The notes under the pieces are model-generated. The model ran no database searches and was not told the origin of the DNA. It saw nothing but the letters and a program-made list of their open reading frames with translations. This document shows, piece after piece, positions 6,073 to 27,480 of a DNA stretch of 64,000 nt. Location: contig JAAOMT010000776.1 in the NCBI GenBank assembly GCA_016748015.1, forward strand, positions 431,496 to 495,495, given 5' to 3'. Position numbers and translations under genes: made by a program. The stretch is from Geosiphon pyriformis (lineage: Eukaryota; Glomeromycota; Glomeromycetes; Archaeosporales; Geosiphonaceae). The first letter of the stretch is position 1, and the number at the start of each line of letters is the position of its first letter.

Positions 6073-6074
<2 letters not shown>

Positions 6075-8135: not shown

Positions 8136-8167
8136 AAAATTTAGGAGAGAAAGAGTTTTTTTTTTTT
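6073..8167 (-). mobile_element. HAL-B: 5' part on the minus strand
   Basis: The minus strand runs from the HAL 5' end (A-run at 8156-8167, then CTCTTTCTCTCC) through ORF1 to the codons VYDDT at 6073, where it stops beside the HAL-A poly(A). The remaining 3' part of ORF1 lies on the opposite strand at 8168-8332. This is the arrangement expected from a twin-primed 5' inversion. The alternative is that HAL-A inserted into a continuous minus-strand HAL whose 3' end is the 3452-3618 piece. Confidence 0.72.
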
Positions 8168-8332
8168 GTATGAATTCTATGATGACACCTTCAATCTTAT
8201 GATGAATCTATGGAAAGACCAACTCTTCAGTATCAAATCCAATCTTGATCAGACTGCTAAGTGGATGAGTGATATAGTTAAGAATAGTTATGAGCTTGTT
8301 AGCATTATAGGTAAGATGTATGAATTAGATAT

Positions 8333-9033
8333 TGTTATGAGTTAGAGTAACAAGCTAATAGATAGCAAGGAAGAACAGGATTGTAAGATGATGAAAATAA
8401 TCAAAGGGAATTCAACTTCAAAAAGCAAATTGAATGAGTATGGATTCAATGTGTGAGATTAGTCTCATAAAATATCTCAGTCATTATGTTTTTCAAAGTA
8501 ACTGGAGAATCTGAAGGTAGAGGGATAGTCTGTACTGTCAACAAATGATCACACTTGGTATAATTCTATGCTTTATGTCAGCACTCTTAGAATTCAATAT
8601 CAAGTATCAGATGTGCTCTTCAGTTATGTTTTATTCAATAATCTCCAAATGTTGTAATTACACGTTTCAGAAAAAGACAGGTAAACACCAACAAGTAATC
8701 TTTTATTCCAAAGATGTTTAGATACTTGAAGGTAGGGAAAGAGAATTTAGTGATAAGAGAATGATTGAGATGAAAGTTGTTATTTTATTTATTTAATTCC
8801 TTGATTTTTAACATACTTTTCTACAGCTAAAAGATTCATCACTTATATAGCTATCAAAAGTGGTCAATAATCAGGTCATTGATCAGATCAATAATCAGGT
8901 CAATGGTCAGGTCAATGATCAGGTCATTGATCAGATCAATGATCACTTTTTAAAAATAGAGTGGCTAATTTATATGACATCAGTGGCTAATACATGTGAT
9001 AATTAATAAGAAGTATAAGTTTCAGCCATAACA
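8333..9033 (-). repeat. Gy1 solo LTR (minus), 701 bp, with ATAT target duplication
   Basis: The LTR starts TGTTATGAGTT on the plus strand and ends AGCCATAACA. It is flanked by ATAT at 8329-8332 and ATAT at 9034-9037, a 4-bp target duplication inside HAL ORF1. No internal Gy1 sequence is next to it, so it is a solo LTR, normally the product of recombination between the two LTRs of one element. Seven 12-mers are at 8862-8945. Confidence 0.9.
8862..8945 (-). promoter_or_regulatory. 12-bp tandem array in Gy1 U3, 7 copies
   Basis: Seven units of the AGGTCA-containing 12-mer lie between the TATA-like sequence (minus, near 8840-8850) and the LTR start. Confidence 0.7.
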
Positions 9034-9190
9034 ATATGTTTGATACATTAAGTAGTTAGGACTTTCCATTTGTGGTTAGCCACATCTTGTGATTTTGTAT
9101 TATTGAGTGAGCTGGCTTTATGAAAGTGTCACATTACTGTGGACATAACTAATAAATAACCGGCATGGTTACACATTAACAAAAAAAAAA

Positions 9191-10311
9191 GACGAATGAG
9201 ATGCCTCTTTTTTCTATTATCTGCATAATATTTGCTATAAGATTAATCCCTGGCTTAGATTGTTTATTAGTGGGATATTCAAGTATATTATGAGCTGACC
9301 ATCTTTGTGTCTGCAAATTAGCTAGTCTGATTTTTATAGCTGTTCCAGCAATATCATTACTGTTCAATCTTGCTTTTTTTTTTACAGTGGCTAAGATCAT
9401 TGAGATCCATCTTCTGGCCCAACTATTTGGTATATGAGTCAATTGAGATCTAAATTCTATTGCTGGACTGAGTATCCTGTTGAAAATGTAAATTGTCTGT
9501 TTTTCAGTAATGTGTTTTTTCCTAATAACCCCACATACTGCTTCAATGTCAGATTTTATTATTTTTAGCACAGTTTCATTTTTTCATTTGTTCTCCAAAT
9601 ATCAGGTGCATGTAGACGGATCCAGTAATTTCAAGGTTTGTTTGTATGGACTTAATTTTAGTGGCTTAACCAACACTGATTTCCTTTTAGAGGATTTGAC
9701 CACTATTGTTTTAGTCTTATCTAAGTTGATCTCAATATCTACTATTCTAAAGAAAAAGCTGGCTGTGTCCAAAATACTCTGCATTTCTTGTCTTGAGTTA
9801 GCTATCTACACTGTGTTATCAACAAAGACAAGGTGATTTACTGATGCCAATAGGGATTGTGTGTCTGTTTGATTGTCCCACTTTTTCCATTCAGCTGTTA
9901 ATTTGTATTCTTAACTGTAATTGGCTTGTTTTACTTCACACAGTAAAGGGTCATAGAAAATCCTCCACATGATGAGTGAGCTTGTTTTCCCCTGATTTAG
10001 TTTATCCTGTACTTGATATTTATTACTTAATCCAAACTTAATTATGATTCTATTGCTTCTGTTGTTGTACATTAAGCCAAATAGCTCAGTAAACCAATTG
10101 TTCATCTTGATTTTTTTTAGTGCAGTTTCTTTGGGTTTCCATCCTATTGAGTGGTATGCCTTTTTCATGTTCTGAAATGTAAACCAAGCCTCATTATCAA
10201 ATTTTCTTGCATGTTCAGCAACAGCATTAATCACATGGATTGGCACTGCTGTAGATGTATTCTTTAAAACTGAGATATTATATCCTTTTAGAATATTGTG
10301 AAGCTCACATG
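9191..10311 (-). pseudogene. L2-b/c ORF2: RT to post-RT part
   Basis: The minus strand encodes the LINE RT palm (FTFQNMKKAYH, QVQDKLNQGKTSS) and downstream region (EAVCGVIRKKHITEKQ, RSQLTHIPNSWARR). The catalytic box reads FVDN (9815-9826) instead of FVDD. Relative to L2-d, about 37 codons are missing after VKKKA. At the 5' side it starts at CATGTGAGCTT (10301-10311). That is the same RT codon at which the plus-strand L2 fragment 19458-20845 ends, so the two are halves of one L2 copy split by HAL-C. The lower end abuts the HAL-B poly(A). Confidence 0.82.
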
Positions 10312-10496
10312 GTTTGTTTGTTTTTTTTTTTGTTAATGTGTAGCCACACTGGTCATTTATTAGTTATGTTTACAGTAATGTGGTGCTTTCATAAAGCCAG
10401 CTCACCCAATAATACAAAATCACAAAATGCAGCTAATCATAAGTGGAAAGCCCTAACTACACTCTAGTACTACCTTTATTACTCAATGTATCAAAC
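10312..10496 (-). mobile_element. HAL-C 3' end (tail and 3' UTR)
   Basis: An oligo(T) (10321-10331, with a C-interrupted extension to 10312) is followed by the HAL 3' UTR in reverse complement and the last ORF1 codons, ending at the ATAT that flanks the Gy1-C LTR. The HAL sequence beyond ATAT is not on the right. It is on the plus strand at 20846-22932, displaced by the inversion. The adjoining CATGTGAGCT (10302-10311, minus) matches CATGTAAGCT at 20836-20845, the target duplication of HAL-C. Confidence 0.85.
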
Positions 10497-10500
10497 ATAT

Positions 10501-11200
10501 TGTTATGGATTGGAGTAACAAGCTAACGGATAGCAAGGGAGAACAGAATTGTAGGGTGATGAAAGGAATCAAAGAGAATTCAATTTCAAAGAGCGAATTG
10601 AATAAGTATGGATTCAATGTACAAGATCAGTCTCATAAAATATTTCAGTCGCTATTCTTTTCAAGGATAACTGGGGAATCTGAAGGTAGAGGGATAGTCC
10701 ATACTGTCAACAAATGATCACACTTGGTATAATTTTATGTCTCATGTCAGCGCTCTTAGAATTCAATATCAAGTATCAGATGTGCTTTTCAGTCACATTT
10801 TTATTCAATAATCTTCAAATACTTTGTTTAATCGTTTCAGGAAAAAGCAGATAAACACCAACAAGAGATCTTTTATCCAAAAGATGTTTCAGATACTTGA
10901 AGGTAGAGAAAGGGAAATTAGCAATAAGAGAATGTTTGAAATGAAAGTTGTTTTATTATATTTCTTTGATTGTGGGGAACATACTTTTCTACAGCTAAGA
11001 AACTCATTGTTTATATAGATATGAAAAGTGGTCAACAACTAGGTCAATGATCAGGTCAATCATCAGATCAATGATCAGGTCAACGGTCAGGTTATTGATC
11101 AGGTTAATGATTACTATCTAAAAATAGGTTGGCTAATTACATAACATCAGTGGCTAATACATGTAATAACTAATAAAAACTATGAGTTTCAACCATAACA
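10501..11200 (-). repeat. Gy1-C 3' LTR (minus), 700 bp
   Basis: It has TGTTATGGATT at the low end and AACCATAACA at the high end of the plus strand. On the minus strand it follows the polypurine tract GGAGAGGATGA (11201-11211) and internal Gy1 sequence, so it is the 3' LTR. ATAT (10497-10500) lies directly beyond it. Seven 12-mers are at 11030-11113. Confidence 0.9.
11030..11113 (-). promoter_or_regulatory. 12-bp tandem array in Gy1 U3, 7 copies
   Basis: Seven units, somewhat more diverged than in the other LTRs (several GGTTA variants), in the usual place upstream of the TATA-like box. Confidence 0.68.
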
Positions 11201-11237
11201 TCATCCTCTCCAAAGAGATTGAGCTCTGGCAAAATCA

Positions 11238-11824
11238 AACTATTTATGAGATATTCTAATTAAAGGGTTATCTAACTCAAAACTAACTAGTTTGTTAAAG
11301 TCTTTTGTGGATAAAGTGTATAGTACTTGAGGTGAAATGAGCTTTGTATCCAAGAGACCAAACTTTTGTATAAGAGTTTTGGCTCTTCTGGCAATGGTCA
11401 AAACTCTTGGAACATCCAACTGTATAATGCCCAAAATTTCCACTTGTATCTCAGAAGTTGTTTTCTTCATGAGCTTCATGTCTTCTATGATTTCACCAAG
11501 GCAACCATAGAGCTCTAGTTGTCTTCCATATGACAAGTTTTTGTCTATGGGCAAGATTTCTTTAATCATTTTTCCAATTGTGGTGGAAGGTACAAGTATT
11601 GCTGCTGTTATGCTTTCCAACAGATACTTATCCATTTTGCTACCAATTCTTTCTCTTCTGGTAGTTGTTTTCTTTGGTCCAATAACAGTATGTGTTCCAC
11701 TGTTGTCAGTTATTGTAGTTTGTTTTCCAATGATTAGAGTAGCATTTAGATAGTTTTTAATTCAATACTCATAAAGAATATAGAAAGCGTTTTAAATGTT
11801 TTGATCCAAAAAATAATTGTTCAT
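11238..11824 (-). pseudogene. Gy1-C ORF3, extra ORF after integrase
   Basis: ATG at 11824 (minus), about 195 codons. The C-terminal 115 codons are uninterrupted (MDKYLLESITAAILVP through LYTLSTKDFNKLVSFELD). Two stops lie in the first third, and the last residues are shifted relative to the sister copies. No recognisable domain. It is conserved in position and sequence with 2101-2756 and 39355-39922, so it is a regular part of the family and not chance coding. Confidence 0.65.
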
Positions 11825-11865
11825 GTCAATTGAAGATACCTCTGTTTTGAAAATGGTGCATTTAT

Positions 11866-13089
11866 TTATACTTGGTTTTTGCTGATTATTTGGGTCAGTA
11901 TTACTACAACTGGTAACCAATCAGGTTGTTTGTAATATTTCTTGAGTCGTGTGCCATAAACAGGATGATCATTAAAGATTGTTCTGGATTGATTTTGAAG
12001 AATATAAGAATCATTGTTCAAAACTTTGTTGACTATAAAGGGACCTTTCCACTGGCTAGAGAATTTATCACCATAGACATTGTCTCTGTCTGAGTGGTAT
12101 TCCAAAACTAAGTTACCAATACTTAAAGAAAGTGTTTTATAAGTTTTCTTCTTTTTAAGCTTTTCTTGGAACTGTTTTATCTTTTCAAAGGCAATTATTT
12201 GTGCTTCTACAAATGAGTCAAGAATGGTACCAAGTCTCTTTTGCAAAATGTCTTTATAATTCTCTATTGTGATCTCTTCAAAGGGTATTATCTCAATATC
12301 AGTTTCTATTGGTAGTGTTGCCATTCATCCATAGAGCAGATAAAAAGGTTCATAACTTGTTATGTCATGATTCACAGTTCTATAAGCAAACAAAGCTGAA
12401 GGCAGTACTTTGTCCCATAAGTTTGTTTTTTTACTTGTTTTGGCTAGAGTTTCACATAGTGTTCTATTGAAACGTTCCACTAGGCCATTTGTTTGGGGAT
12501 GATAAGGGGAAGAAAGTTTGTGATGTATTCCCATTTTTCTACAAAGTTCTTCAACCAGTGTACTAAGAAAAGCTCTTCCTCTATCAAATAATAGTTCTTT
12601 GGGGCAGCCATGGCAACAAATGATATCTTCATAAATGAAATTGGCTATTGAGACTGCTGTTTGGTCTGGAGTGGCTCTTGCTTCTAATCACTTTGTAAGA
12701 TAGTCAGTAGCTGTGATGATGTAACTGCTATCAGGAGTTACTGTTAAAGGTCCAACAACATCTATACCAATTCTGTCAAATGGTTGACCAACAGAGATTG
12801 GATGGATATCTTCTTTGTGATTGGGTTTTTCTCTTCTTTGGCAGGTATCCCAGGTTTTAATGTATTCAGCAATGTCTTTTCCCAAGGTAGACCAATAATA
12901 GTGAGCTAAGGTTTTCTGAATTGTTTTTGTTTTTCCAAAGTGTCCAGCTAATGGATCAGTGTGCATATTGTAGATCACAATTTCTCTTTCTTCAAATCTT
13001 ATGACTCTCTGAGGGCAGTCAGGATCTTTTCTGTTTCTTTTGTATAGTTGGTTCTGGCAGATCAAATAGAAATTTGATTGTTTGCGCAA
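11866..13089 (-). pseudogene. pol: Gy1-C integrase
   Basis: A single frame of 408 codons with two stops (near 12325 and 12686). The N-terminal zinc-binding region keeps the two histidines (HTDPLAGHF), but the first cysteine of CxxC is replaced (TWDTC). The catalytic triad is complete: GIDVVGPL, LLFDRGRAF (about 12570-12600), NGLVERFN, with 35 residues between the second D and E (DD35E). The C-terminal part (SLSIGNLVLEYHSDRD, KGPFIVNKVLN) matches the SH3-like tail of gypsy integrases. This is the best-preserved Gy1 catalytic core in the window. Confidence 0.86.
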
Positions 13090-13099
13090 ATGTTCTCTT

Positions 13100-13790
13100 T
13101 ACTGTCGATTGTATTCCAGTGGGTATTGTCCTTTACCCAAAAATTCCATTAAGGCAGAGTAGTTGTCCAAGTCCATTATCATGTTTGGTTGTGAGAGAAT
13201 TACTAATAATTAGGTTGGTTTGGTTTGAGGTAGTTGTACTGTTACTGGATGGTAAGTCTAGAGAGAGCATCAGCATTTTGATGATGTGCTTCTTTGCGAT
13301 GTTGAATATCATAGTCAAATTCATCCAAGTAGAGTATCCAACAAGTTATTCTTTTATGTTCCAGCTTCTTTTTGTTGCATAACCAAACCAAAGCTTGGTG
13401 ATCTGTTACTACCAGGAATTTGGCACCAAGAAGATATTTGTTCCAATAGCTAGTAGCCCATACTACTGCCAGGCATTCTTGTTTAGTTACCGAGTAGTTC
13501 TGCTCTACTGGTGAGAAAGTTCTACTGGTATATGCTATGGCATGTTCTTTGCCATCTTTATCTTTTTAGAATAGAACAGCTCCAAGTCCATAGCCAGATC
13601 CATCAGTGTGGAGGATGAAAGGTTGATCTAGATCAGGTTGCTTCAGAATTGGTTCAGTGACTAGTTTTTCTTTTAGAGTTTTAAAAGCTTTTTGTTGGTG
13701 TGTGCCCCAAGAGTAGTTGACGTTTTTCTTGAGTAGCTGATTAAGTAGAGCAGCTATTTTGGAAAGAGCATAGTTCATGAACATTCATTG
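13100..13790 (-). pseudogene. pol: Gy1-C RNase H
   Basis: RNase H of the Ty3/gypsy type: DQPFILHTDGSGYGLGAVL, ECLAVVWA, LVVTDHQALVWL and HHQNADALSRL supply the expected D, E, D, D residues. A stop at about 13566 follows AVLF, and the region after 13250 is frayed. Just upstream, 33 bp are missing compared with the 37440 copy (removing GLASYYNKFI), an in-frame deletion at the RT/RNase H connection. The enzyme removes the RNA strand during cDNA synthesis. Confidence 0.8.
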
Positions 13791-14460
13791 GTTGTCTAAT
13801 GTTCTGGACTTTTTCAACCTTAGCTGGATCAGGAAAGATTCCATCTTTTGTGATAAGATGACCAAGAAATTGGGTGGATTGTCTTCCAAAGAAAGATTTG
13901 ATCAGGTTGATCTTGAGGCCTGTATTTCTGAAAAGATCAAAAACCTTTTGCAAATGTACAAGGTGTTCATCCCAGGTTTTTGAGTACACCATTATATTGT
14001 CCAAATAAACCAAAACAAAGTTTTCTTTCACTAATTCAAATACTTTATCCATTAAGCATTGAAAGGTGGGAGGGACATTGGTGAGACCAAAAGGCATGAC
14101 TGTGAATTCATAGATGCCATACTTGGTAATGAAGGTGGTTTTCTTCTGGCTTTCTGGATCCATCTCTACTTGCCAGAATCTAGCAGTTAGATCAATGGTT
14201 GAGCATCTTTGAATTGGTCCAGCATTGCATCAATCTTGGGAAGTGGGTACATGTCTCTTTTAGTAATGGCATTTAATTGGCAGTAGTCAACACAGAAGCA
14301 TAGGGTTCCACCTTTCTTGAATACCACTACAACTGGAAAAGCCCATTCACTCTTGGTTTCTTGTATGAATCCAAGTTCTTTTATCCGGTTTATCTCTTTC
14401 TTGATGAACTCATCATTGTGCCAATTGGATTGATATGGCTTCAAATGGATGGGGTAAGTT
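13741..14460 (-). pseudogene. pol: Gy1-C reverse transcriptase
   Basis: The fingers and palm of a Ty3/gypsy RT are recognisable: GFIQETKSEWAFPVVVV, CVDYCQLNAIT, YPLPKIDAML, YEFTVMPFGLTNVPPTFQ. The catalytic box reads YLDN (13996-14007) where the 37198 copy has YLDD, so this copy would be inactive. A short deletion and frameshift near 14165-14190 removes part of FSTIDLTAGFWQ. RT copies the element RNA into cDNA inside the particle. Confidence 0.86.
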
Positions 14461-14469
14461 TCTCTGGTG

Positions 14470-15056
14470 GTAATGGTGTGTTGTATTACATAAGTTCATC
14501 CAGGGATATCACCTTCTTTTGAGATAACTGGGCTGTTTCTAGCCAGCAGATTTTCAATGTCTATTTTTCTTTCTTCTGAAGAGGGTTTTCTTTGTTCTAC
14601 AACTAGTGATTGGATCTCAGGTGGTTCATTTTCAAAGGACTTTTGGACTTCTTTCAATTCTTCTCTAGGTATTAAACTGATTGGTTCCCAATCTTTGTAA
14701 TAGATCAGGCATGATTTGCATTCATTACTTGGAGAATACAAGGGTTGGTTGCACCAGCACCAGGCACAAGGACCATGCCACCAATAATGGTACTTGGCTT
14801 TCTTGTTAGGCTTCTGGTCAAAAGTTCTTCTTAGAATATCATAGTAGGGCCAGCAGATCAGCTTGCCATTTACAATGATTCCTTCTCTGTCAGCTTTGAC
14901 ATTGTCCAGTGGCTTGCCATTGCTGGTAAAGGTAGTATAGGCAAGTTCAGCAGTTTTTTTTTGTTCCTTTTGTTCTTCATCATCATCACTTTCTTCATCA
15001 TCTGATTCCTCTGATTGTTCTTCTTCCTGATTCTGTTTTGGTGTTGGAGGGGTTGT
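14470..15056 (-). pseudogene. pol: Gy1-C linker with Cys-rich zinc-binding-like cluster
   Basis: Between protease and RT, in the protease frame, lies an acidic stretch (EEEQSEESDDEESDDDEEQ). It is followed by CAWCWCNQPLYSPSNECKSC, a compact set of cysteines that could bind zinc, and then SCLIYYKDWEPISLIP. The same cluster is in the 36430 copy. Such a module between protease and RT is not a standard gypsy domain. Function unknown. Confidence 0.6.
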
Positions 15057-15395
15057 TCAGTGGTGACACTTAACCACAATGAGCTTTTTACCACATCTGA
15101 TGATTAGCTCACAAAGTTCATAGTCAAGTAATGCTTTGGCTTTCTTGAGCCATTCATTTCCAACAATAATAGTGTATTTCTTGGCTTCAGAAACTTCCAT
15201 GTCAGTTTCAATGCTGATGTCATTGATATGGACAGGAATAGCTTTGGCTATGCCCAGACCTTTCTTTTTGTCACCATGTACATTGGTCATTGGTCGGGTG
15301 GAAGGTTCATCAATCTTTCTCCCAATTGCTTCCAAAAAGTGTTTGGCAATGACACTAATAGATGATCCACTGTCCAGAATCAAGTCAATGAAATA
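15057..15395 (-). pseudogene. pol: Gy1-C aspartic protease
   Basis: Retropepsin-like domain, 113 codons: YFIDLILDSGSSISVIAKHF with the catalytic LDSG (15366-15374), then VHGDKKKGLGIAKAIPVHI and YTIIVGNEWLKKAKALLDY (flap and ILG-like parts). The frame is open and the active site intact, unlike the 35836 copy (DSR). It would cleave the Gag-Pol polyprotein. It starts exactly at the inversion breakpoint; the preceding residues (KAQVAG) are at 25417-25435. Confidence 0.84.
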
Positions 15396-15399
15396 GCAA
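15394..15399. other. Left breakpoint of a 10-kb inversion
   Basis: Minus strand: L2 ORF2 codons end here (IPDNLETL) and Gy1 protease begins (YFIDLIL). The matching continuation of L2 is at 25436 plus and the matching upstream part of Gy1 ends at 25435 plus. GC is shared by both partners at both junctions (15396-15397 and 25435-25436). Confidence 0.85.
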
Positions 15400-17147
15400 T
15401 GTTTCCAGATTGTCTGGTATTTGGGTATCTAATTTGTGCATTCCCAGTGCTTTACATTGGGCAATATCAATGTTCCTGCATTCATCCATAATGATCATAG
15501 ATACTAGTATCTTAAACCAACTGGGTATTCTACCACTGTCACTCTGTCTGTACCTCCTTGTGAAGTCCATTCAAGTCATTAGCGATTCATCCATGTTCTG
15601 TACCTGATGCAAATACAAAATGGTCTTTTTTCTCAGTAAGCCTCTAACTTTAGTGTAAGTTGCACCCAAAGCTATAACAGTCTCAATTAAATGTGCATGT
15701 GGCCTTGAAGATTCAGGTATCCCATGCATGTCCCCAAAGCTTTTGAATGAGATGCTCCTTTCTTCCATTATCTGCATGATATTTGCTATAAGATTAACCT
15801 CTGACTTAGATCATTCTTTAGCGGAATATTCAAGTACACTATGAGCTGATCATCTTTGTGCTTGCAAGTTGGCTAATCTGATTTTTGTAGCCATTCCAGC
15901 AATATCATTACTGTTTAATCTAACCAACAAATCTGTAATCTTGCTTTTTGCTTGTATATTATCAATTTTGAACAAGTTGTACAAAGATGAGTGATGCATA
16001 GTCATGCATATTTGTATTGTTTGCTCTTATTTGTTTGATTATATCAGCAACAACCTTAACAAGTTTGTGATTTATGCATTCTTTCTTTGTATATGTAGAT
16101 TGGGCTTCCACTTTCCTTTTTGGTAGGCATTCAGCAGCTTGTAACACAGTCTCCTTGATTGTAAGCCACATCTGGTTTAGATCATCATTGCTGTTATCTA
16201 TTGATTTTCTTTGTGCTTCATCTGTTAGTCGATCAGTTTTTCTTGCATAGATTTCCCATTGGACTCCAGATGCTTTTTTAATGTCAATCATAGTTGTGCT
16301 ACACTTCTTTAGTGCCTGCCAAGATTCTATCAGATTGGATGATTGTCACTACTGCTTTGTGATCAGTGCTAAATAAGTCCAGCATGGCTACACGTTAACA
16401 AAAAAAAAATCAGTGCTAAATGATTCATTAACATTAATAACCCCAATATTTGTGATTAGCGAGGCTGTAACAACATTAGTAAACACATAGTCTAATCTCC
16501 TCTGTACTCCATTTGATGCCTATGTATTATCTGAATTGTTTACTGCATACATTCCATGTATATTTACCATATTCATCTGTTGCAGCAATGTTGCAATAGG
16601 ACATTTTTTTTCCTTGTTTGTGGCAATTGTCTTTTCAAGTAATTTGGATGCCAGATCTTTATTCAAATTGCCTGCCACCATGACAATTTCTTTGTTTTGC
16701 ACAATGTTTGCTAAAAGCTTTCTGATCTCTTTTGCCACTGCCTTTTCAGTAGGTGATTTTGATGCAGACATATACAACCCAACTATTTGTACACTTACTT
16801 TACCCCTAAATTTCAATACCAGATGCAATAGTCTCCCATAATAACTCCACATGGTGAGTCCAACATTTTTTTACTAGTATGCCCACCCCAGTTCCTATTT
16901 GTTTCTCAGTGCTTGACTCCCAAAAGGTGTGATAATCCCCAGTGCCAAAAAACATCCCTTTTTCTTTGAATGGGGTCAGTTTAGTTTCTGTAATGACCAC
17001 AAAATCAAACTGTCTATCCTTAATCTATTGTAGTACTTCCTCAGCTTTGCCAGGATTGTTAAGTTCTCTAACATTAATAGTTCCTATTTTCCAAGTATTA
17101 TTATCAGCAATGTTCTGTTCTAAGTTGAAGTTAAATGTACTATACAT
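15396..17147 (-). pseudogene. L2-a ORF2: endonuclease and post-RT part, RT deleted
   Basis: ATG 17147 overlaps the ORF1 stop by 8 nt (ATGTATAG). The N-terminus encodes an AP-type endonuclease: VITETKLTPF, VQIVGLYMS, MVAGNLNKDL (AGDLN in L2-d). Later come CLPKRKVEAQ and KLVKVVADIIKQIRANN. At 15990-16005 the sequence jumps to the post-RT region (KIRLANLQ, ANIMQIMEERSISF), so the whole RT domain is missing. Short repeats of ATGCAT at the junction suggest a microhomology deletion. Several stops and frameshifts follow. The C-terminal RNase H continues at 25436. Confidence 0.82.
16363..16421 (+). mobile_element. HAL-F: 35-nt HAL tail insertion with 12-bp target duplication
   Basis: The last 25 nt of the HAL 3' UTR (ending GCATGGCTACACGTTAAC) plus ten A lie at 16375-16409. 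They are flanked by perfect copies of TCAGTGCTAAAT at 16363-16374 and 16410-16421. It sits in the endonuclease coding region of L2-a, opposite to its direction. This is an extreme 5' truncation from target-primed reverse transcription. Confidence 0.92.
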
Positions 17148-19330
17148 CATCTGTTTCTATAGATTTAGATTCCCCAGCCATAGCACCATTCCAGTTACCC
17201 TGTTTCTCCACTTGTTTTAGCAGTATTATAATAGGTTTTAGGGCCTTTTTAATATCATTGATTTCTTTCTCTGGATTGTATGCCTCTTTTTTCTCCTCTA
17301 AGTTATGTTTGGAGAACATATCTTGTTTCACTTTTTTATTACCCCCTCCTTTCTTTTCCTCTGATATATGACTTGGTGGTTGATTTACCACTCTGTCTTC
17401 ATTTTTTTTCTACTGTCACTCCAAGTTTTAAAGCCACAGCATTCAGTAGTTTAGCCATTTCATTCACTTGTTGTCTCAATTCATCAATTTCAATTCTCCA
17501 TGGCTGGTCAGCTTCTTTTTTCTGTTGGCCCTTTTTGTTGTTTGCTTGTGAGCCAGCTTTTTAAGACCTACTTGGGTTTGCATTGTTCTTATAACTAGAT
17601 GGGTTTAGTGCTGCCATTTCAGCATATGATCTTCCTCCAAAGATCTTGATGGGTTCTTCTGGTACATTCTTTTTAACATACAATTTGGCCAATCATATGT
17701 TGTTGGTAACTTTTTTGGTATTCTCCTCCTTTTTTTTAAGTAAAGTAGGGCAATTAGAGCCCAAATGTTCTATCTGATAACAAAAATGACACTCTTTAGC
17801 ATCAGTAGGCACCCAGTGAACCAAAGTGTCTCCAATTACCAAGAGCTTATTGGTAATATTGTAACAATTGGTTTCACTATCAAACTCTATGTAAGCACAG
17901 CCCATTCTGGTGTAGTTTCTGCTAGTTCTAAGAATAAAGCAAGATCAAGCTTTGATTTGATCCAGAGTGGTACTTAGATAGTGGGCAGTACAGTTCTGTA
18001 ATAGGCCAACAAGCTTAGCTTCCCAGGTTTTCCTCTGCTCAATAATCTTTTGGGTACCTATCATTGGATAAATTCTGACTGCATTTTTCCTGATCAGGGT
18101 CGACCATTGGTCCACAGCTCTGGTTGCTTCCTCTTGGTTGTTGAATTCAACTACTGCTGACTGCCATTTTCCAGCCACTTTGATTTCTCTGTCAGAAATA
18201 CTCAAAGGAATATCTCTAACTAAAACCTTCCTTTGACCAGCCATTTGGTTGGCAATGCCATCAATTTCCACATCTGCTTGAATTTTTCTAGCTTGATCCC
18301 TTCTAGCAATTTGGGAGAAGTCTATTCAGATTTCTTAGTTTCTCACCATTACAGTCCCTAAAAGATAACTAACATCTCCCAACAGGTTGTAAATCCACCC
18401 CACCTTCATTTCCATGTTTTTTTCCAATATGTCCAATATCTGCATGAACAGAACATGTCTCTTGATGTCATAAACAACAGTTTTCTATCCTTCTTCTTGA
18501 TTTGCTTCCATAGACATGGCATTTTTCTCAAATAATTTGCTACTCTTTTGGCCCAGGCTTGGGCTTGGCATTCTGCTAGATAGACTCGATTTAGAGTCTT
18601 CCATGTTCTTTGCAGTTTCTTCCAAATTGACAATATCTTTGTTTGTTTCAAATAGATTGTCCATTTGCTCATCAAATTTTTCTACAGATTTTCTTTTGTT
18701 GATTTTGTCCAAAATCTCAGGATTGCATTTTCTTAGAGCTGCTTCAATCTGTGCTGCTTTTTTAACCTCTTTACTAGGCAATTTAGATGGTCTATCCAAT
18801 TTTTTCAAGGACTTTGATGCTCTCTTTTCACCAGTCCAAGCTTCCATTTGAAACTTATTACTGTTTTCTCCTTTGTTGAACATTAGTTGTAAAATGAAAT
18901 TGTTGGTCTGGTCTGTTGTTTTATCAGTGAGTTTCTCTTCAATGATCTGGTTAAATCTTTTCATTAGGCCTTTTACACTTATTTTTCCTAAGTGTCTGTA
19001 TTTTTTATTAGGTTTTTCTTCTAGTCTGTTGCCTGTTAGTAAAGAAAAGTCAGCTGCTCTTCGATGTGGAGCTGTTCTTTTTGATGTATTAGCAATTCTA
19101 AAGGGTGTGTTAACTCTACTGCTTGTGTTTACACTTCCAATTGTTTTACTGCTATGTTCAAACCTGAATGGAGGTGTTGTAAGTCTTGTATTCTCAACTG
19201 GTATTAGGTTTGATATGATTGTGTTATTTCCTTCTTTCCTTTCACTTGGTTTTTGTACTTAGTGGTATCTTTGCTAGTACTTCTGTTTGTGACTATTGTT
19301 ACTTTGCTATTAGTGTTGTTGTCAGACACT
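17140..19330 (-). pseudogene. L2-a ORF1, RNA-binding protein
   Basis: Same domain order as L2-d ORF1: charged N-terminal region (KGENSNKFQMEAWTGEKRAS, AAQIEAALRKCNPEIL), RRM-like part (VLVRDIPLSISDREI, WQSAVVEFNNQEEATRAV, NAVRIYPMIGTQK), a second RRM-like part (MGCAYIEFDSE), CCHC-type knuckle CHFCYQIEHLGSNC (about 17745-17790), and a Lys/Glu-rich helical C-terminus ending ETDDV. The stop TAG (17140-17142) overlaps the ORF2 start. Frameshifts near 17400-17690 and stops make it a pseudogene. No ATG is clear at the 5' end. Confidence 0.78.
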
Positions 19331-19457
19331 TTAAAGTCTGTTATAATAATAAAGTGTACTTTTAACTAAAAGTATCTTTTGGCAAAAAACTATTTTTCCA
19401 AATTTGAGGCATAGTAAATTTTGTGGTAGCAGACAAAAAAAGAAAAAAGTTTTTTTT

Positions 19458-20845
19458 GAAGATTTGACATTCAAGTCATTTAATGAAACATTTGCCACAA
19501 ACAAAGAAAAAAATGTCCCACTGCAATAATGCTGCAACAAATGAATCTGGTGGATATACATGGAATATATGCAGCAAACAATTTAGATAATACATGGGCA
19601 TCAAATAGAGTACAAAGGAGATTGGACTATGTGTTTACTGATGTTGTTACAGTCTCACTAATCACAAATATTGGAGTTATTGATGTTAATGAATCATTTA
19701 GCACTGATCACAAAGCAGTAGTAACAATTATCCAATCTGATAGAATCTTGGCAGGCACTAAAAAATCTAGATCTAGAAAAAAGAAGTATAGCACAACTAT
19801 AATTAACATTAAAAAAACATCTGGAGTCCAATGGAAGATCTATGCAAGAGAAACTGATTGACTAACAGATGAAACACAAAAAAAATCAATAAATAACAGC
19901 AATGATGATTTAAACCAGATGTGGCTTACAATCAAAGAGACTGTGTTACAAGCTGTTGAATGCCTACCAAAAAGGAAAGTGGAAGCCCAATTTGCATACA
20001 CAAAGAAAAAATGCATGGATCACAAGCTTGTTAGGATTGTTGCTGAGATAATCAAACAAATAAGAGTAAACAATACAGATATGCATGATAACAATGTTAT
20101 GCAGCTGTTGGCCAAATAAAAACAATTGAAACCTGAGACAGCTAATACATATTTGATGACTCTCCCAAAAGAGAAGCTTATTATAGAATTACTAAGCATC
20201 AAAAAAGAATACAGATCTACACTGCATGCTAGAATCAAACTACAACAGCAAAGACAGATAGTGGACAATATTATTAAAAGACAACAAAACTTTGAGCTAA
20301 ACAAAGGAGTAATAATCAAAAGCATTCTAAACAGAAAAAAACAAAGAATAGTACTAGACCATGTCATAAAAAAAGACAAATTTCATGATGATCCTAATAA
20401 AATCAAAAAGCTAGTAAATAAAAAAGCTTAAGGGTAGACTAGAACAAGAAATCTTGAACCTGAATTATGAAAAAGTTTGGAACACAGATTTAAGCCAATT
20501 GAGAACATCCCAGACTATGTCTTTGATGGTGTGATGGCTGAAATAATAAATAAGGAATTCGAACATATATTGAGCCACACATCTCATAACAAAGCCTCTG
20601 GCCCATCCAGCATTCAAGTTGAACTCTGGGCCTAATACCAAGTGCAAACTGAGAACATTGCTTAATGCTTGTATAGAAGCAGCAAACATGCCTGAGGAGT
20701 GGAGAATAGCACAAGTCATACTGATTCCAAAGCCAAAAGAATGGGGTGGCAATATTGACATCATCAGACCAATCACACTCATTGAAAGCACTAGAAAAAT
20801 CTTAACAAAGATTTTAACTACAAGAATATCAAAAGCATGTAAGCT
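19458..20845 (+). pseudogene. L2-b/c ORF2: endonuclease to RT fingers
   Basis: Plus strand, starting inside the endonuclease (FKSFNETFATNKEK), then DYVFTDVVTVSLITNIGVID, the conserved STDHKAVV (19696-19720), CLPKRKVEAQ, a helical linker, and the RT N-terminal part (NMPEEWRIAQVILIPKPKEW, RKILTKILTTRISKACKL). It stops at CATGTAAGCT (20836-20845), where HAL-C begins. The next RT codons are on the minus strand at 10311. Frame shifts occur near 19900 and 20440. It is the 5' half of the L2 copy that hosts HAL-C. Confidence 0.82.
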
Positions 20846-22932
20846 AAAAAAACTCTTTCTCTCCTAAATTTTATGACCATGACTAGAGCTAAGAGTAAAA
20901 AAGTTGCAAATATTACTTTTTCTATAGTAACTAATAAAGTTTCAACACAAAAGGGTCTCTTAGTTATTGAAGCAGCTAGACAAAACGTTCTGGCTACATT
21001 TCCTTTAAAAAATATTAGTGAAAAGCTGTCTTTAGTGGCTTCTGGTTCATTTTCTTTACCTTTGGCTGGTAGTTTTCCAGTCAAAGTTCCTTTCACAAAT
21101 GGCTGCAAAAGCAAAAAATTCCAAAAAACAGCAGCAGACAGTCACAACTGCTATGGTTATACTGAACCCCTTTGTGGTTACAGATGAGATCTTTGGTAAG
21201 ATCTCCACAGCAGCAGCCAGCCCTCTTTCTGATATGAATGGCAACAGCAGCAACACATCTTCCAAGATGGGCCAAGATCAACCACTGGCTGTGTTGCCTG
21301 ATGTGGTACTCTCGAGCAGATCATCACCAATCCCAGTAGTAAAACAGCTCATTATTTCAGATGATTTCAAAGATTGGACTGATCAGATGGAAATGAAATC
21401 AACTGCTCCTCCCTTAATCTCTGGTGCTGCTGATGGTGGTGCTTGGGAAAATGTGAATGGTTGTCAAAGGTTCTCTGGTTGAGTGGCCTCTAATCTTGTA
21501 CCTGGTGCTACATTTAAGATTAAGATGGCCTTGCTCAATTCCTTGTTTCTGGTTGTATTGGGCTTAAGTCTGTTTCATGAGATGCTGTCAAGTTGTTTTG
21601 TGTGGAATTTGCATCTCAGAAGAGTCTGAATGGTGCCACCAAAGTGGCCATTGGTGATGAGGTTTTTTGACTACTCTTAAGATTGCATGGTCTTCTGGTG
21701 TGGCCTCTGTTTCTTCTACCCCTTTGTCAGTTGCACTTTGTAATGTACCTTTGGGTACCCCCTCTGATAACATCAAATCTGCTCTTGGCATTTTTGGTGT
21801 TGTCACTTCTGTCAAGTTGAAGCCTGCTGGCTTATGGCAATATGCTGTAGTTCATTTCTTTTGCTGCTGCTGCTCTTACTCATTGGTCTGTGCTGGTTAG
21901 GAAAGACAGTATTAGGATTCTCCTTGTTGTCAACCAAAATGATGTTATTTCTTCAAGAGACACTTTTAAGGCTAAGTTGGTTAATCTTTCCTTTGGCTGT
22001 ACTGCCTTTAAGATAAGTGATTTGGTCTCCCAAGTTGGTGGCTGTACATGTTTCATTCCTTGCTCCCCTGAATCTTACTGATGTCAATGCTTTGCTATGG
22101 TTATCTTTGATTCTTTGGAATCTTTGAATGCTGCTGTGTTAAAAACTGGTATTTTGCATGGTTGCTGCATCTGGTGGGAAACTTCTGGATGTCACCACTG
22201 CTACAGGTGTCAAGACCTGACTCATTTGGCTGTGAACTGCAAGAAGTCACCTCCTCTCCCACCCAAACTATTTTTTAACACTTCTGGTAGTGCCAGAGTT
22301 TTCAAACCTTCATTTGCTGGATCAAGATCTTATGCCAAAGCTGCTGCTTTTGTGGTTCCTCCTGTTGCTGCTGCTGTTGATATAAACTTGGATCTCAGTA
22401 GTCCCCTCAAAACTACAACACCCATGTTGCCTGTTGTCTCTTCTGCTCCCAATATTGCTATTGAATCTAGGTTAGCTTTTCTGGAATCCCACTTTAGTAA
22501 ACTATCTGTGTTGATAAAATCCTTAGTTGAACCTGTCGGTGCTCTGGTTGCATTGGTTACCAAATTGCTGTCTACTCCACCTGCCATGGATGTGTTAGTG
22601 AGAAAATGTGTGAATGGTTTGGCTAAGCAAAATAAAGGCTTGGCTGCTGTTGCTTCCATAATGCAGAAAAAAATAACACACCTTGAGAAAAAATGTGAGT
22701 GGGCCTGCTTGGAGAATGCATCTGATAATAATGACATGGTTGATGATGATAATAATGATAATAAAGATTTTTCAGTCTATGATAACACTTTTAATGTTAT
22801 GATGCATCTTTGGGAAGATCAGCCTTCTAGTATCAAATCCAGTTCTAATCAGACTGCTAAGTGGATGAATAGTATGGTTAAGAATAGTCATGAGCTTGTT
22901 TGCATTATGGGTAAAATGTATGAATTAGATAT
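20846..22932 (+). mobile_element. HAL-C: 5' end and most of ORF1
   Basis: It starts with an A-run and CTCTTTCTCTCC directly after CATGTAAGCT, the target duplication shared with 10302-10311 (minus). It runs to GAATTAGATAT at 22932, where the Gy1-C 5' LTR is inserted. The rest of HAL-C (last codons, 3' UTR, poly(A)) is at 10312-10496 minus. Before the inversion this was a full-length HAL unit with target duplications on both sides and no ORF2. That is the strongest evidence that HAL moves as an ORF1-only unit. Confidence 0.85.
20873..22932 (+). pseudogene. HAL-C ORF1 (interrupted)
   Basis: ATG 20873 (MTMTRAKSKKVANITF). An internal deletion of about 140 bp at 21088-21095 joins KVPF to the TNGCKSKK region. 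Further frameshifts are near 21560, 21660 and 21880. The RRM-like region (FGVVTSVKLKPAGLWQYAVV) is at 21790-21860. The CCHC knuckle CYRCQDLTHLAVNC is at about 22200-22242. A 22330-22780 stretch with Ala-rich, coiled-coil-like and Asp/Asn-rich parts is open. It ends at YELDI where the LTR starts; apparent codons beyond 22932 are LTR sequence. Confidence 0.78.
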
Positions 22933-23583
22933 TGTTACAGTTGAAACTCATAGTTTTTATTAGTTATTACATGTATTAGCCACTGATGTCATGTAATTAG
23001 CCAACTTATTTTTAGATAGTAATCATTGACCTGATCATTGACCTGGTTGTTAACCACTTTTCATAGCTATATAAGCAATGAGTCTCTTAGCTGTAGAAAA
23101 GTATGTTCCCAACAATCAAAGAAATATAATAAAACAACTTTTATCTCAAACATTCTCTTATCGCTAATTTCCCTTTCTCTACCTTCAAGTATCTGAAACA
23201 TCTTTTGGATAAAAGATCTCTTGTTGGTGTTTATCTGCCTTTTCCTGAAATGATTAAACAAAGTATTTGAAGATTATTGAATAAAAACGTGACTGAAGAG
23301 CACATCTGATACTTGATATTGAATTCTAAGAGTGCTGACATGGGCATAGAATTATACCAAGTGTGATCATTTGTTGATAGTACAGACTATCTCTCTACCT
23401 TCAGATTCCCCAGTTATCCTTGAAAAGAATAGCGACTGAGATATTTTATGAGACTGATCTTGCACATTGAATCCATACTTATTCAATTCGCTCTTTGAAA
23501 TTGAATTCCCTTTGATTCCTTTCATCACCTTACAATCCTGTTCTCCCTTGCTATCTGTTAGCTTGTTACTCCAACCCTTAACA
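22933..23583 (+). repeat. Gy1-C 5' LTR (plus), 651 bp
   Basis: It starts TGTTACAGTTG, ends CCCTTAACA and is followed by TAAAAG and the PBS. ATAT (22929-22932) precedes it inside HAL ORF1. It is the shortest Gy1 LTR, because only three 12-mers (23020-23055) remain. TATATAAG follows at about 23066-23073. Confidence 0.9.
23020..23055 (+). promoter_or_regulatory. 12-bp tandem array in Gy1 U3, 3 copies
   Basis: Three units (TAATCATTGACC, TGATCATTGACC, TGGTTGTTAACC) before the TATA-like box. This is the smallest array in the window. Confidence 0.68.
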
Positions 23584-23589
23584 TAAAAG

Positions 23590-23608
23590 TGGTGCTCCCT
23601 GTGAGGTT
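23590..23608 (+). other. Gy1-C primer binding site
   Basis: TGGTGCTCCCTGTGAGGTT, six bases after the LTR end, identical to the sites at 452-470 (minus) and 27336-27354. Confidence 0.82.
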
Positions 23609-23769
23609 GTCAAAATTCACTTATTTCCTCATTGTATGGGTAATTATTCATATCTGCCACAGCAATCAGAAGAACACTTTGCAGCACACAACAGAAACAA
23701 TCTAGACTTTATTGAACTCAATCCTTTGCCCTCCTGCTTGATCTGCTTTCCTCTTGAAGAACAATCTAG

Positions 23770-24963
23770 TATACAATTCTAAATGAGCACTCAGCTGAAA
23801 CCTATACAGCATATACAACTTATTACTTTGACCAAGCTTATTTTGAAGACAACTTTGAAGAAAGAAATAATTGCATCAATCAGCTTTTATACTCCACAAC
23901 TTTCACACAACAGCCCCCTGATTTTGAATATCTGAATCACCAAATACACATTTGGGTTGCTGCTTACCAATCAACTATAACTCTCCTTGAAACAGAAGAA
24001 GAAAGTTACCAAACTGTTCCTATTTTTGATCTCTTTTTAAGTAAATCAGAACATTCCACTCAAACAGTAACCCCTGAACCAATGGCCCAAGACCCCATGC
24101 AAGCAAACATTCTGGCCATCCTCCAAGGCATACAAACTGCTTTGGGGCGAAAAAACAACACCCCACTACCCCTATTCAGAGGTGATGCTTAAGATCCAAT
24201 TGAATGGTTGGATGATGATGAATACAAGTTCCAAATCATTGGTGGCTACCTCCAAGGTGCTCCTGCTACCTGTTTTTCACAAGAAACCAATGCTGGTGCT
24301 CAACAAAGAATTGTTAGATGGACCTTAGCAAATATTGGAGAAAACAACACCTCTTTCACTACCCAGTTTGAAAACAAATTCAGAACCCCCATCTTAATAT
24401 CCAAATGGTGTATGGAATTAGAAAGAAGAACCCAAGGTCCTGGTGAAGTTGTGACTGAATATGCCAAAGCAATCAGAAAATTCATAATGCATTTGGGATC
24501 CACACTTCCAGTTTTTGCTCCTGCTCCTGTTATGGCTCCTACTTCTCAAATGGCTGCTACTTATTTTGCTGCCCAGACACAAGATCCAAATGAACAATTA
24601 ATAGATAGACTTACAGCAAATCTTGCTCAACTATTAGAACCATTAGCCCAAGCAGTCAGAGATAACCAGCAACCACAAAGACCCAGATTTGAAAACCATT
24701 TTAATCAGCCCCAGCAACCCCCTTACCAAAGACAGCAAAATCGTGGCCCTCCTGTGTGTTATAGATGTGGATTAACTGGACATTTCTCCAGAGATTGCAA
24801 CAATCCTTCTTTGTCTCCTCCAGCTCCCAGAAACAATGATAATCAAAACAACAGAACTATTAACAACAATGCCCTCAATCAAAGACCTAATCATGCCAAT
24901 ATCAATTTTTTTGGAGAGGATCCCCTAGTTGAAGCCACTGTTTATCAGCCTTTAAACTGGTAG
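23770..24963 (+). pseudogene. gag: Gy1-C gag
   Basis: The frame is open from after TAG 23767-23769 to TAG 24961-24963, with one internal stop at 24190 (GDA-stop-DPIEW). Order: N-terminal part (YFDQAYFEDNFEERNN), MAQDPMQANILAIL, a capsid-like region of the gypsy Gag type (FRGDA, DPIEWLDDDEYKFQIIGGYL, APATCF, FTTQFENKFRTP, TEYAKAIRKFIMHLG), a Pro/Gln-rich stretch, and the nucleocapsid CCHC knuckle CYRCGLTGHFSRDC (24757-24798). Gag forms the particle and binds the RNA genome. The last codons overlap the pol frame and contain the TTTAAAC heptamer. Confidence 0.85.
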
Positions 24964-25435
24964 GCACACCTCCAAAGGATGAGAGTGCAAGCCAACCAGA
25001 AAAAAACCCCTTTTATGCTTTTAACTTAACTGATGATGACCATGACATGGATGAACTAGCAATCAACACCTCAGAATCAACAAGGAAGAAGAAGAAAGCC
25101 AAGGTTGATTTCGTTTTAGATCCAAATAAATCATCCACATCAAATGCTGATAATAATGAGCCACCAAAGGCTAAAGTCTTTAAGAATCCTCCAAAGTTGG
25201 AACCTTCAGAAATAGTACAAAAATCTGGTCCTTATTCTGTTGTCAAAGATCTCATGGAAACTCCTGCACACATTACCTTTGGCCAACTAATAACCCACCC
25301 ACAATTCAGAAAAGATCTCTGCAAATCTCTAATTCCCAAGAAGAAAACACCAAAAACCAATAAACGCTCTTGCCAAGCTGGACTTGCTGACAACAGCAAT
25401 GTTATCCCATTAATTTGCAAAGCCCAAGTGGCTGG
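24933..25435 (+). pseudogene. pol: Gy1-C pol N-terminus upstream of protease
   Basis: Open -1 frame relative to gag: VGTPPKDESASQPEKNP, then DMDELAINTSESTRKKKK, KSGPYSVVKDLMETPAHITF, and NSNVIPLICKAQVAG, where it ends at the inversion breakpoint. It is uninterrupted. The same segment in the 35425 copy leads straight into protease (KAQVAGYFIDL). No known domain. It is likely a spacer or the p6/transframe-like part of the polyprotein. Codons after 25435 belong to L2. Confidence 0.75.
24951..24957 (+). promoter_or_regulatory. Putative -1 frameshift heptamer TTTAAAC, Gy1-C
   Basis: TTTAAAC sits at the end of gag, in the phase T TTA AAC relative to the gag codons, one codon before the gag stop (TGG TAG). 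The -1 frame is open from 24933 and leads directly into pol. This is the classical X XXY YYZ slippery form. The same heptamer in the same phase is at 35329-35335. A downstream stimulatory RNA structure was not established. Confidence 0.78.
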
Positions 25436-25437
25436 CA
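25433..25437. other. Right breakpoint of a 10-kb inversion
   Basis: Plus strand: Gy1 codons KAQVAG end and L2 ORF2 codons begin (RDSIYIHIPDTLLPQW). The partner breakpoint is at 15394-15399. Shared GC (25435-25436). Confidence 0.85.
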
Positions 25438-26581
25438 AAGAGACTCTATTTACATTCATATTCCTGATACCTTATTGCCACAATGGAAGAGGGTATGGGA
25501 GAAGTTGAGACTCAGAAATGAACTAGAGATATAAACAGATAGCTCATTGGTAAAAGCTGGTTCTGTGAAAGCTAGAGGAGCAGCTGCTTTTGTAACACAT
25601 GGAATGGAAGCCAGCTATGGTATAGCAGTAGATGGTACATTGTTATCAACAAAGACTGAGACTAAGACTGTACTACTGGCTTTGAAGGCAGTACCATACA
25701 GATGCAAACTAATATTAAATACAGATAGTCAAGCAGTTATATCAACAGCTTAAAAATGGTTGTCTAAGAATTTCCTCTTGTCCATTAGAAATCAGCTCAA
25801 AACTCTTAACTGGTGTACATAGAATGTAATCAAAGCAGTGATAGGTGAAAAAAAGATTGATTTTATCATAAAAAAAGTGGCTGCACATACTGAAGTGTCT
25901 GAAAATAAGAAGGCTGACAAACTAGCCAAAGAAGCTACAGCTTTTGACACAGTGGGGTGGGCCTACAATGCCAAGTATGTTAGTTATGTTCTCTTTTGCA
26001 GAGGAGTTGAGTTGGATTTAAATATTAGACACTTCCTAAGCCAACAATCTGGGCTTCAAGCTGCTTTGGATTGGATAAGCAATGTCAAAGTTCAGAAGAC
26101 ATTAGAGTCTTTGGACCAAGAGATAGACTAGGAGTGCACAACCAAGGTTTGGAACTGGGATGGTAAAATGTCTTCAGGCTTCACCTCAGCTGGTTCCTTG
26201 GCAATGTGTACATTTATTATGAAATCATTTCACAACATACTGCCAATAGCGGAGGTACTGTACAACAGATGTCCTCTGGTGTATCTAAACAATCTTTGCA
26301 AAATATGTCACATGGAAGTAGAGACCAACCAGCACTTTTGAGAATGCTCCTTAAGTACTTAAAAAAGCAAGACACTAATAGATAAGATAAGAAATGAGTG
26401 GATGCAGTGCTTATCAAAGACTGTAAGAGGGAAACATAAAACCATAGACTTTGGTGTGAAGATTGTCCTTTCTAAAGAGTACATTATGTCAACATCCAAC
26501 ATAGATCTGCTATGCAAAATTTTGATTGATAAACAATTTGGAAGAATCAATGCCTTTGCTGATGTTGATCAAAAAGACTAA
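25436..26581 (+). pseudogene. L2-a ORF2 C-terminus: RNase H and CCHC
   Basis: One frame to TAA 26579-26581 with a few stops. The RNase H residues are in place: TDSSLVKAGSVKARGAAAFV (D, about 25540), ETKTVLLALKAV (E), LNTDSQAVIST (D), HTEVSENKKADKLAKEA (final D). A CCHC-type finger CKICHMEVETNQHF-x-EC follows at about 26295-26346, typical of the ORF2 end of RNase H-bearing LINE clades. It is in frame with the ORF2 end at 15397 (minus) across the repaired inversion. Confidence 0.84.
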
Positions 26582-26590
26582 CAATAATAT

Positions 26591-27329
26591 TGTTATGGTT
26601 GAAACTTATACTTCTTATTAATTATCACATGTATTAGCCACTGATGTCACATAAATTAGCCATTCTATTTTTAGTAAGTGATCATTGACCTGATCAATGA
26701 CCTGACCATTGACCTGATTATTGACCTGATCATTGACCTGATCATTAACCTGATCATTGACCTGATCATTGACCTAGTTGTTGACCTGATCATTGACCAC
26801 TTTTGACAGCTATATAAGCAATGAATCTCTTAGCTGTATAAAAACATGTAAGAATCAAAAGGAATAAAGAAATAAAATAACAACTTCATCTCAATCTTTC
26901 TCTTATCGCTAATTTCTCTTTCCCTACCTTCAAGTATCTGAACATCTTAAAGATAAAAGACTACTTGTTGGCATTTACCTATTTTTTTCCTGAAAATGTG
27001 TAATTGCAGCATTTGAAGATTATTGAATAAAACATGACTAAAAAGTACATCTGATACCTGATATTGAATTCTAAGAGCACCAACGTGAGGCATAGAATTA
27101 TACCAAGTGTGATCATTTGTTGACAGTATGGACTATTTTTTTATCTTCAGATTCCCCAGTTATCTTTGAAAAGTATAGTGACTGAGATATTTTATGAGAC
27201 TGATCTCGCACATTGAATCCATACTTATTCAATTTGCTCTTTGAAGTTAAATTCCCTTTGATTATTTTCATCACTTTACAATTCTGTTCTCCCTTGCTAT
27301 CCGTTAGCTTGTTACTCCAACCCATAACA
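26591..27329 (+). repeat. Gy1-D 5' LTR (plus), 739 bp
   Basis: TGTTATGGTTG...CCCATAACA, followed by TAAAAG and a PBS, so it is a 5' LTR. ATAT (26587-26590) precedes it, just behind the L2-a stop codon. It has ten 12-mers (26679-26798), TATATAAG (about 26810-26817) and AATAAA-type signals. Confidence 0.88.
26679..26798 (+). promoter_or_regulatory. 12-bp tandem array in Gy1 U3, 10 copies
   Basis: The most regular array of the window. Six of ten units begin TGATCATTGACC or differ by one base, followed by a TATA-like box. Confidence 0.72.
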
Positions 27330-27480
27330 TAAAAGTGGTGCTCCCTGTGAGGTTATCAAAATCCACTTTGTTTCCTATTGTATGGGTGATTATTCATACC
27401 TGCCACAACAATCAGAAGAACACTTTAAAGCATGATCTAAACTTTATTGAACTTAATCCTTTGCTCTCTTGATTGATTGA
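27330..27480 (+). mobile_element. Gy1-D leader fragment
   Basis: 150 bp of Gy1 internal sequence matching 23584-23735, cut off by an oligo(T) of a minus-strand HAL copy at 27481. Gy1 sequence resumes on the plus strand at 35213, near the gag C-terminus, so about 1.1 kb of gag is absent. Whether 26591-27480 and 35213-40716 were one element is likely but unproven. Confidence 0.7.
27336..27354 (+). other. Gy1-D primer binding site
   Basis: TGGTGCTCCCTGTGAGGTT, six bases after the LTR end. Confidence 0.82.

What the first reader, a model, noticed from the sequence alone, without database searches (positions are those of the whole stretch)
15396..25436. A 10-kb inversion whose reversal repairs three retrotransposons at once
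Seen: at 15396 (minus) L2 ORF2 stops after IPDNLETL and Gy1 protease starts. At 25436 (plus) Gy1 stops after KAQVAG and L2 continues with RDSIYIHIPDT. The two junctions are reciprocal. Reversing the block gives (1) L2 ORF2 in one frame into RNase H, (2) Gy1-C as LTR-gag-pol-LTR in frame, (3) HAL-C ORF1 (22932) joined to its own 3' end (10496) across the Gy1 ATAT duplication, and (4) an L2 RT (20845 to 10311) joined across HAL-C with a 10-bp duplication CATGTRAGCT. GC is shared at both breakpoints. Inference: one inversion of about 10 kb by end joining, after the nested insertions L2, then HAL, then Gy1.
Basis: partly seen in the sequence, partly recalled or inferred. Interest (0 to 1): 0.92.

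Follow-up and report, generated by a model that had tools for sequence, protein, structure and literature searches.

The report
Balanced 10-kb inversion through nested retrotransposons
In the soil fungus Geosiphon pyriformis a 10-kb piece of retrotransposon-filled DNA has been flipped without losing a base, cutting a gypsy-like element and a LINE in two; the case is very clear, but of an ordinary kind.

Summary
The window is contig C326 of a 124.7-Mb genome that is Geosiphon pyriformis. Block 15397-25435 is a balanced inversion. In other genomic copies the two Gy1 halves abut with a 2-bp (GC) overlap in 14 of 15 copies found in both capped hit lists, and the two L2 halves in 4 of 4 loci where both align. 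Strongest independent test: the two Gy1-C LTRs (10501-11200 minus, 22933-23583 plus), direct repeats when inserted, now point in opposite directions, yet each is the other's best non-self match genome-wide (755 bits against 682 and 696; UFBoot 100). HAL-C (ATAT duplication) and a second L2 (CATGTRAGCT duplication) are split the same way. Best mechanism: two double-strand breaks joined by end joining. No inverted repeat lies at the breakpoints; the shared GC is within chance (P about 0.16-0.18). The inversion postdates the Gy1-C insertion (LTR K2P 0.052). The broken L2 is a decayed copy with stop codons and an internal gap; Gy1's reading frame was not tested. Reads, isolates and relatives could not be examined.

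The parts
15397..25435 (.). inverted block (edges ambiguous by the 2-bp GC at each side)
15396..15397 (.). left breakpoint, shared GC; Gy1-C (minus) to the left, L2 number 1 (minus) to the right
25435..25436 (.). right breakpoint, shared GC; Gy1-C (plus) to the left, L2 number 1 (plus) to the right
10501..11200 (-). Gy1-C LTR outside the block; best non-self match in the genome is the LTR at 22933-23583
11201..15397 (-). Gy1-C internal region, 3' part (reference L009 internal positions 2044-6243 of 6244); RT domain PF00078 in the ORF 13741-14229
23584..25436 (+). Gy1-C internal region, 5' part (reference 1-931 and 1096-2045); zinc knuckle PF00098 in the ORF 24193-24963
22933..23583 (+). Gy1-C LTR inside the block, about 50 bp shorter than its mate
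20846..22932 (+). HAL-C, 5' part (reference HAL-A 1-256 and 387-2258)
10313..10500 (-). HAL-C, 3' part (reference 2255-2443)
22929..22932 (+). ATAT target duplication of Gy1-C, first copy
10497..10500 (-). ATAT target duplication of Gy1-C, second copy
19459..20845 (+). L2 number 2, 5' part, itself 5'-truncated (reference 2899-4298)
9194..10315 (-). L2 number 2, 3' part (reference 4285-5242 and beyond)
20836..20845 (+). CATGTAAGCT target duplication of HAL-C, first copy
10302..10311 (-). CATGTGAGCT target duplication of HAL-C, second copy
15396..15999 (-). L2 number 1, part inside the block that continues without gap in other copies across the break
16002..19459 (-). L2 5' region, same direction (reference 1-3530); same element with about 1.7 kb missing, or another L2 joined to it
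25435..26590 (+). L2 number 1, part outside the block, with stop codons and RNase H remnants; another Gy1 LTR follows at about 26591

Best explanation
A single balanced inversion. Shown by the sequence: an L2 (number 2) received HAL-C, HAL-C received Gy1-C, and afterwards the stretch 15397-25435 was reversed, cutting Gy1-C at internal position 2044/2045 and another L2 (number 1), with no base lost or gained. Inferred: two double-strand breaks about 10 kb apart whose four ends were rejoined crosswise by non-homologous end joining, at or next to a GC dinucleotide. It has no evident function; most likely it is a neutral rearrangement inside a nest of retrotransposons in the fungus Geosiphon pyriformis.
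For: Gy1 halves abut with 2-bp overlap in 14 of 15 paired copies. L2 halves do so in 4 of 4 loci where both align. L2 protein context continues over this point in 4 of 4 other copies (for example IPDDLETLQKDSIY). The oppositely directed Gy1-C LTRs are reciprocal best non-self matches (40 scored of 2179 and of 2131 candidates), 95.1% identical over 651 sites, FastTree 0.992, UFBoot 100 among 29 LTRs that I chose. HAL-C and L2 number 2 are split likewise, with ATAT and CATGTRAGCT duplications. No inverted repeat at the breakpoints: between the 1-kb neighbourhoods there are three 11-bp inverted matches, E 0.34 each, none at the breaks. No N in the window.
Against: No reads, second isolate or related genome could be examined (the genome has no relatives here). 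The 2-bp GC does not discriminate mechanisms. HAL position 2258 also carries a Gy1 LTR at 8332/8333 and at 3451/3452, so position alone would not fix which HAL piece pairs with which, and one search lists 8332 with 10500 as a possible pair too; the LTR match and the HAL-C target duplication decide it. The L2 number 1 part inside the block has a joint at 15999/16002, so only 604 bp next to the break are sure to be of one element with 25435-26590. Only 2 alignment columns are private to the two LTRs, no more than for three other pairs and fewer than for two.
Confidence: 0.9

Rival explanations
1. Assembly or library artefact: the block was flipped by the assembler or by chimeric amplification.
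For: The region is highly repetitive; reads and assembly method were not available (the genome paper, asked for by a recalled DOI, is not held).
Against: No gap letters in the window and no inverted repeat at the breakpoints on which an assembler could turn. A chimeric molecule makes one junction (general knowledge), whereas here two junctions agree to the base in both elements.
Confidence: 0.06
2. Inversion by homologous recombination between inverted repeats.
For: 146 inverted repeat pairs of 60 bp or more exist in the window.
Against: The breakpoints lie inside two unrelated elements with only 2 bp in common.
Confidence: 0.01
3. Replication-based template switching, perhaps in one complex event with the inverted duplication at 2727-3608 / 8176-9034.
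For: The arms of that duplication differ by about as much (LTR 94.9%) as the Gy1-C LTRs (95.1%), and it lies about 6 kb from the left breakpoint.
Against: The inversion is balanced, without added or lost bases, which template switching rarely gives (general knowledge). The LTR divergence dates the Gy1-C insertion, not the inversion, so the likeness in divergence is weak.
Confidence: 0.06
4. Two unrelated Gy1/L2 junctions that look reciprocal by chance.
For: Gy1 and L2 copies are numerous.
Against: Base-exact agreement in both elements, the reciprocal best LTR match and two target duplications. A scan of the window and 16 loci with three references found five inverted abutting pairs, all in the window: three belong to this finding, two are HAL pairs explained by nesting or by the shared HAL site.
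Confidence: 0.005

Closest known systems
Balanced microinversions with end-joined breakpoints (general class, recalled)
   Same: two breaks, block reversed, no homology at the breakpoints
   Different: both breaks lie in transposable elements whose other copies allow base-exact proof without an outgroup; no duplication or loss at the ends
Inversions by ectopic recombination between transposons (for example Galileo in Drosophila, PMC2775673; title and start of abstract seen in the search listing)
   Same: transposons are at the breakpoints
   Different: no homologous pair of transposons sits at the two breakpoints here; the elements were merely broken
5' inversion of LINEs by twin priming (recalled)
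   Same: parts of one element in opposite orientation
   Different: cannot invert a block that holds parts of four elements, nor split an LTR element

Membership tests
balanced inversion | both junctions reciprocal in both interrupted sequences | tested here: met
   14 of 15 paired Gy1 copies and 4 of 4 L2 loci with 2-bp overlap
balanced inversion | no net loss or gain at the breakpoints | tested here: met
   the overlap in other copies equals the 2 bp present at each junction
balanced inversion | uninverted orientation observed in a relative or on a sister chromosome | not testable with these tools
   no relatives held; no second copy of the locus among the scored places
end-joining (NHEJ) inversion | no homology beyond a few bp between breakpoints | tested here: met
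microhomology-mediated joining | microhomology above chance | tested here: not met
   2 bp; chance 0.156-0.176
transposon-mediated ectopic recombination | homologous inverted element copies at both breakpoints | tested here: not met
LTR retrotransposon (Gy1) | LTRs with TG...CA ends, short target duplication, gag zinc knuckle, RT | tested here: met
   LTR ends and 4-bp duplication; PF00098 and PF00078 in ORFs of Gy1-C, protease PF08284 in the copy at 35311-36147
Ty3/gypsy superfamily (Gy1) | integrase downstream of RT/RNase H, RT phylogeny | not tested
L2 clade of LINEs | RT phylogeny within the L2 clade | not tested

The most novel reading that the evidence does not exclude
The inversion and the nearby inverted duplication (2727-3608 / 8176-9034, about 95% identical arms) arose in one complex local rearrangement by replication fork switching in a transposon nest, so that the apparently simple inversion is one piece of a larger event.
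Probability: 0.06. Interest if true: 0.4.

Novelty: new member of a known kind. Interest (0 to 1): 0.25.

Why it matters
It is a case in which an old rearrangement in a repeat-rich fungal genome can be shown to the base without any outgroup, because four interrupted elements each record it. It fits balanced end joining in Geosiphon and gives a relative order of events (L2 number 2, then HAL-C, then Gy1-C, then inversion). It also points to a usable method: pairs of LTRs that are reciprocal best matches but point in opposite directions would reveal such inversions genome-wide.

Tried and rejected
Mosaic Gy1-C: a first BLAST gave only 88% between the two LTRs, and 373 bp at the outer end of the inner LTR matched C114 at 95%, which suggested two different elements. 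A fuller alignment showed that a gap of about 50 bp had lowered the figure; without gaps the pair is 95.1% and mutually best. Rejected.

Gy1 hotspot in HAL: Gy1 LTRs sit at the same HAL base at 3451, 8332 and 22932/10500. A genome pattern search gave two matches without mismatch, both in this window, one with 1 mismatch and 20 with 2 (control with the pattern read backwards: 11), against 199 uninterrupted sites with up to 2 mismatches (control 1). The pattern misses altered sites such as that in L018. So no general hotspot is shown; the 3451 and 8332 LTRs are sisters in an inverted duplication.

Twin priming of the HAL at 6071-8332 was considered and dropped: HAL-A inserted into it, with an 11-bp shared flank GTGTCATCATA, explains it more simply.

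Private bases of the LTR pair: 2 columns. The highest counts among 406 pairs were 5 (w2729/w8333) and 4 (L008b/L014); three further pairs also had 2. Not used as evidence.

Cytosine deamination: 20 of 32 LTR differences are C/T and 9 A/G, but of the 20 C/T only 5 lie before G (and 2 before a site that is A or G), so no CpG concentration is seen.

Papers: no held paper contains Geosiphon, inversion and retrotransposon together. Other searches were seen as listings only. Of PMC9453076 I saw passages: Geosiphon 129 Mb, 795 scaffolds, 64.35% repeats; the genome held here has 124.7 Mb in 406 contigs, so it is not identical to that table's entry in size.

Full report
The window lies at C326:431496-495495 of a genome of 124,688,122 bases in 406 contigs. 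A protein search with the reverse transcriptase ORF at 30220-31839 returned 67 proteins, many named Geosiphon pyriformis, whose contig lengths equal those of this genome, for example 1038692 (C269), 275262 (C292), 906860 (C114) and 1191207 (C373). A published table gives 129 Mb, 795 scaffolds and 64% repeats for the species (PMC9453076, passages seen); the assembly held here is not of exactly that size.

Junctions. A 401-base query over the left junction matched other copies only up to query base 198 (Gy1) or only from 197 (L2); only the window itself matched throughout (40 places scored of 834 candidates). The right junction behaved alike: Gy1 to query base 201, L2 from 200 (40 of 894). Fifteen Gy1 copies occur in both lists; in 14 the halves overlap by exactly 2 bases, and in one (C69) a 1-base gap remains because both alignments stop short. 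In L012, L013, L014 and L019, the fetched loci in which both L2 halves align, they overlap by 2 bases. The two shared bases are GC at both junctions. Nothing was lost or gained. Left of the L2 break the frame reads ...HKLDTQIPDNLETL and right of it RDSIYIHIPDTLLPQWKR...; the other copies read for example HKLDTQIPDDLETLQKDSIYIYIPDSLLPQWKR (4 of 4 continue over this point). The L2 is decayed: the frame right of the break stops at 25532 and several times after; two of its pieces match RNase H below the curated cut-off, at complementary parts of the profile. Left of the break, only 15396-15999 continues without a gap; at 15999/16002 about 1.7 kb of the reference (3531-5271) is missing, by deletion or because another L2 begins. 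The reading frame of Gy1-C across the break was not examined.

Independent test by LTRs. The LTRs of one insertion are identical and in the same direction at birth (general knowledge). The LTR at 22933-23583 (plus) and that at 10501-11200 (minus) are each other's best non-self match in the genome: 755 bits both ways, next best 682 and 696 (queries of 480 and 479 bases, 40 scored of 2179 and 2131 candidates). They are 95.1% identical over 651 ungapped sites and form a clade in trees of 29 LTRs (FastTree support 0.992; UFBoot 100). They therefore most likely belong to one element whose ends now face opposite ways, which needs an inversion between them.

Other split elements. HAL-C: 20846-22932 (plus) and 10313-10500 (minus) map to HAL-A with a 4-base overlap, ATAT, the target duplication of Gy1-C. 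L2 number 2: 19459-20845 (plus) and 9370-10315 (minus) map to copies uninterrupted at this site with 14 to 15 bases of alignment overlap; the duplication proper is CATGTAAGCT / CATGTGAGCT, present once in each of the four copies printed, in the window's own copy with a base change (CATGTAAACT). A scan for inverted abutting pairs with HAL, Gy1 and a 3'-truncated L2 reference over the window and 16 other loci gave five pairs, all in the window: three of this finding, one from the nesting of HAL-A, and one cross-match through the shared HAL site. The truncated L2 reference cannot show the L2 number 1 break itself.

Mechanism. The breakpoints are inside unrelated elements; between their 1-kb neighbourhoods there are three 11-base inverted matches at E 0.34 each, none at the breaks. 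The 2-base GC has a chance probability of 0.156 (equal bases) or 0.176 (GC 0.37). Balanced end joining of two breaks is the best account (inference). An assembly flip is unlikely because no repeat joins the breakpoints and the window has no N, but reads were not available.

Order and age. L2 number 2, then HAL-C, then Gy1-C, then the inversion; L2 number 1 only has to predate the inversion. The Gy1-C LTRs differ by 29 transitions and 3 transversions, K2P 0.052, which bounds the inversion from above in relative terms; no substitution rate is known to me for this fungus.

Verdict. The finding is real and unusually well supported, but it is a member of a well-known class, and no effect on a gene was seen.

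Noticed in passing
2727-3608 and 8176-9034: Inverted duplication: Gy1 LTR (94.9% over 700) plus a HAL fragment (95.5% over 157) with the same HAL/LTR junction; one arm continues into Gy1 internal sequence, the other holds a solo LTR between HAL flanks. Neighbouring HAL bodies are only 80.5% alike.
   Followed up: partly
3451/3452, 8332/8333, 22932/22933 and 10500/10501: Gy1 LTRs at the same base of different HAL copies within one window, although 199 sites of this kind (up to 2 mismatches) are uninterrupted in the genome.
   Followed up: partly
3609-6072: HAL-A inserted into another HAL in opposite orientation, with shared flank GTGTCATCATA and a long A tail.
   Followed up: partly
10501-11200 and 22933-23583: 29 of 32 differences between the Gy1-C LTRs are transitions (20 C/T, 9 A/G), without concentration at CpG.
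   Followed up: partly
15999/16002: L2 number 1 lacks about 1.7 kb of the reference here (3531-5271): internal deletion or joint between two L2 copies.
   Followed up: partly
26591-27477: A further Gy1 LTR with a short internal stump directly follows L2 number 1 and ends beside a HAL.
   Followed up: no
C292:249757-250127 (in L018): Another HAL 3' end joined to a Gy1 LTR near the same HAL position, apparently with a small deletion.
   Followed up: no
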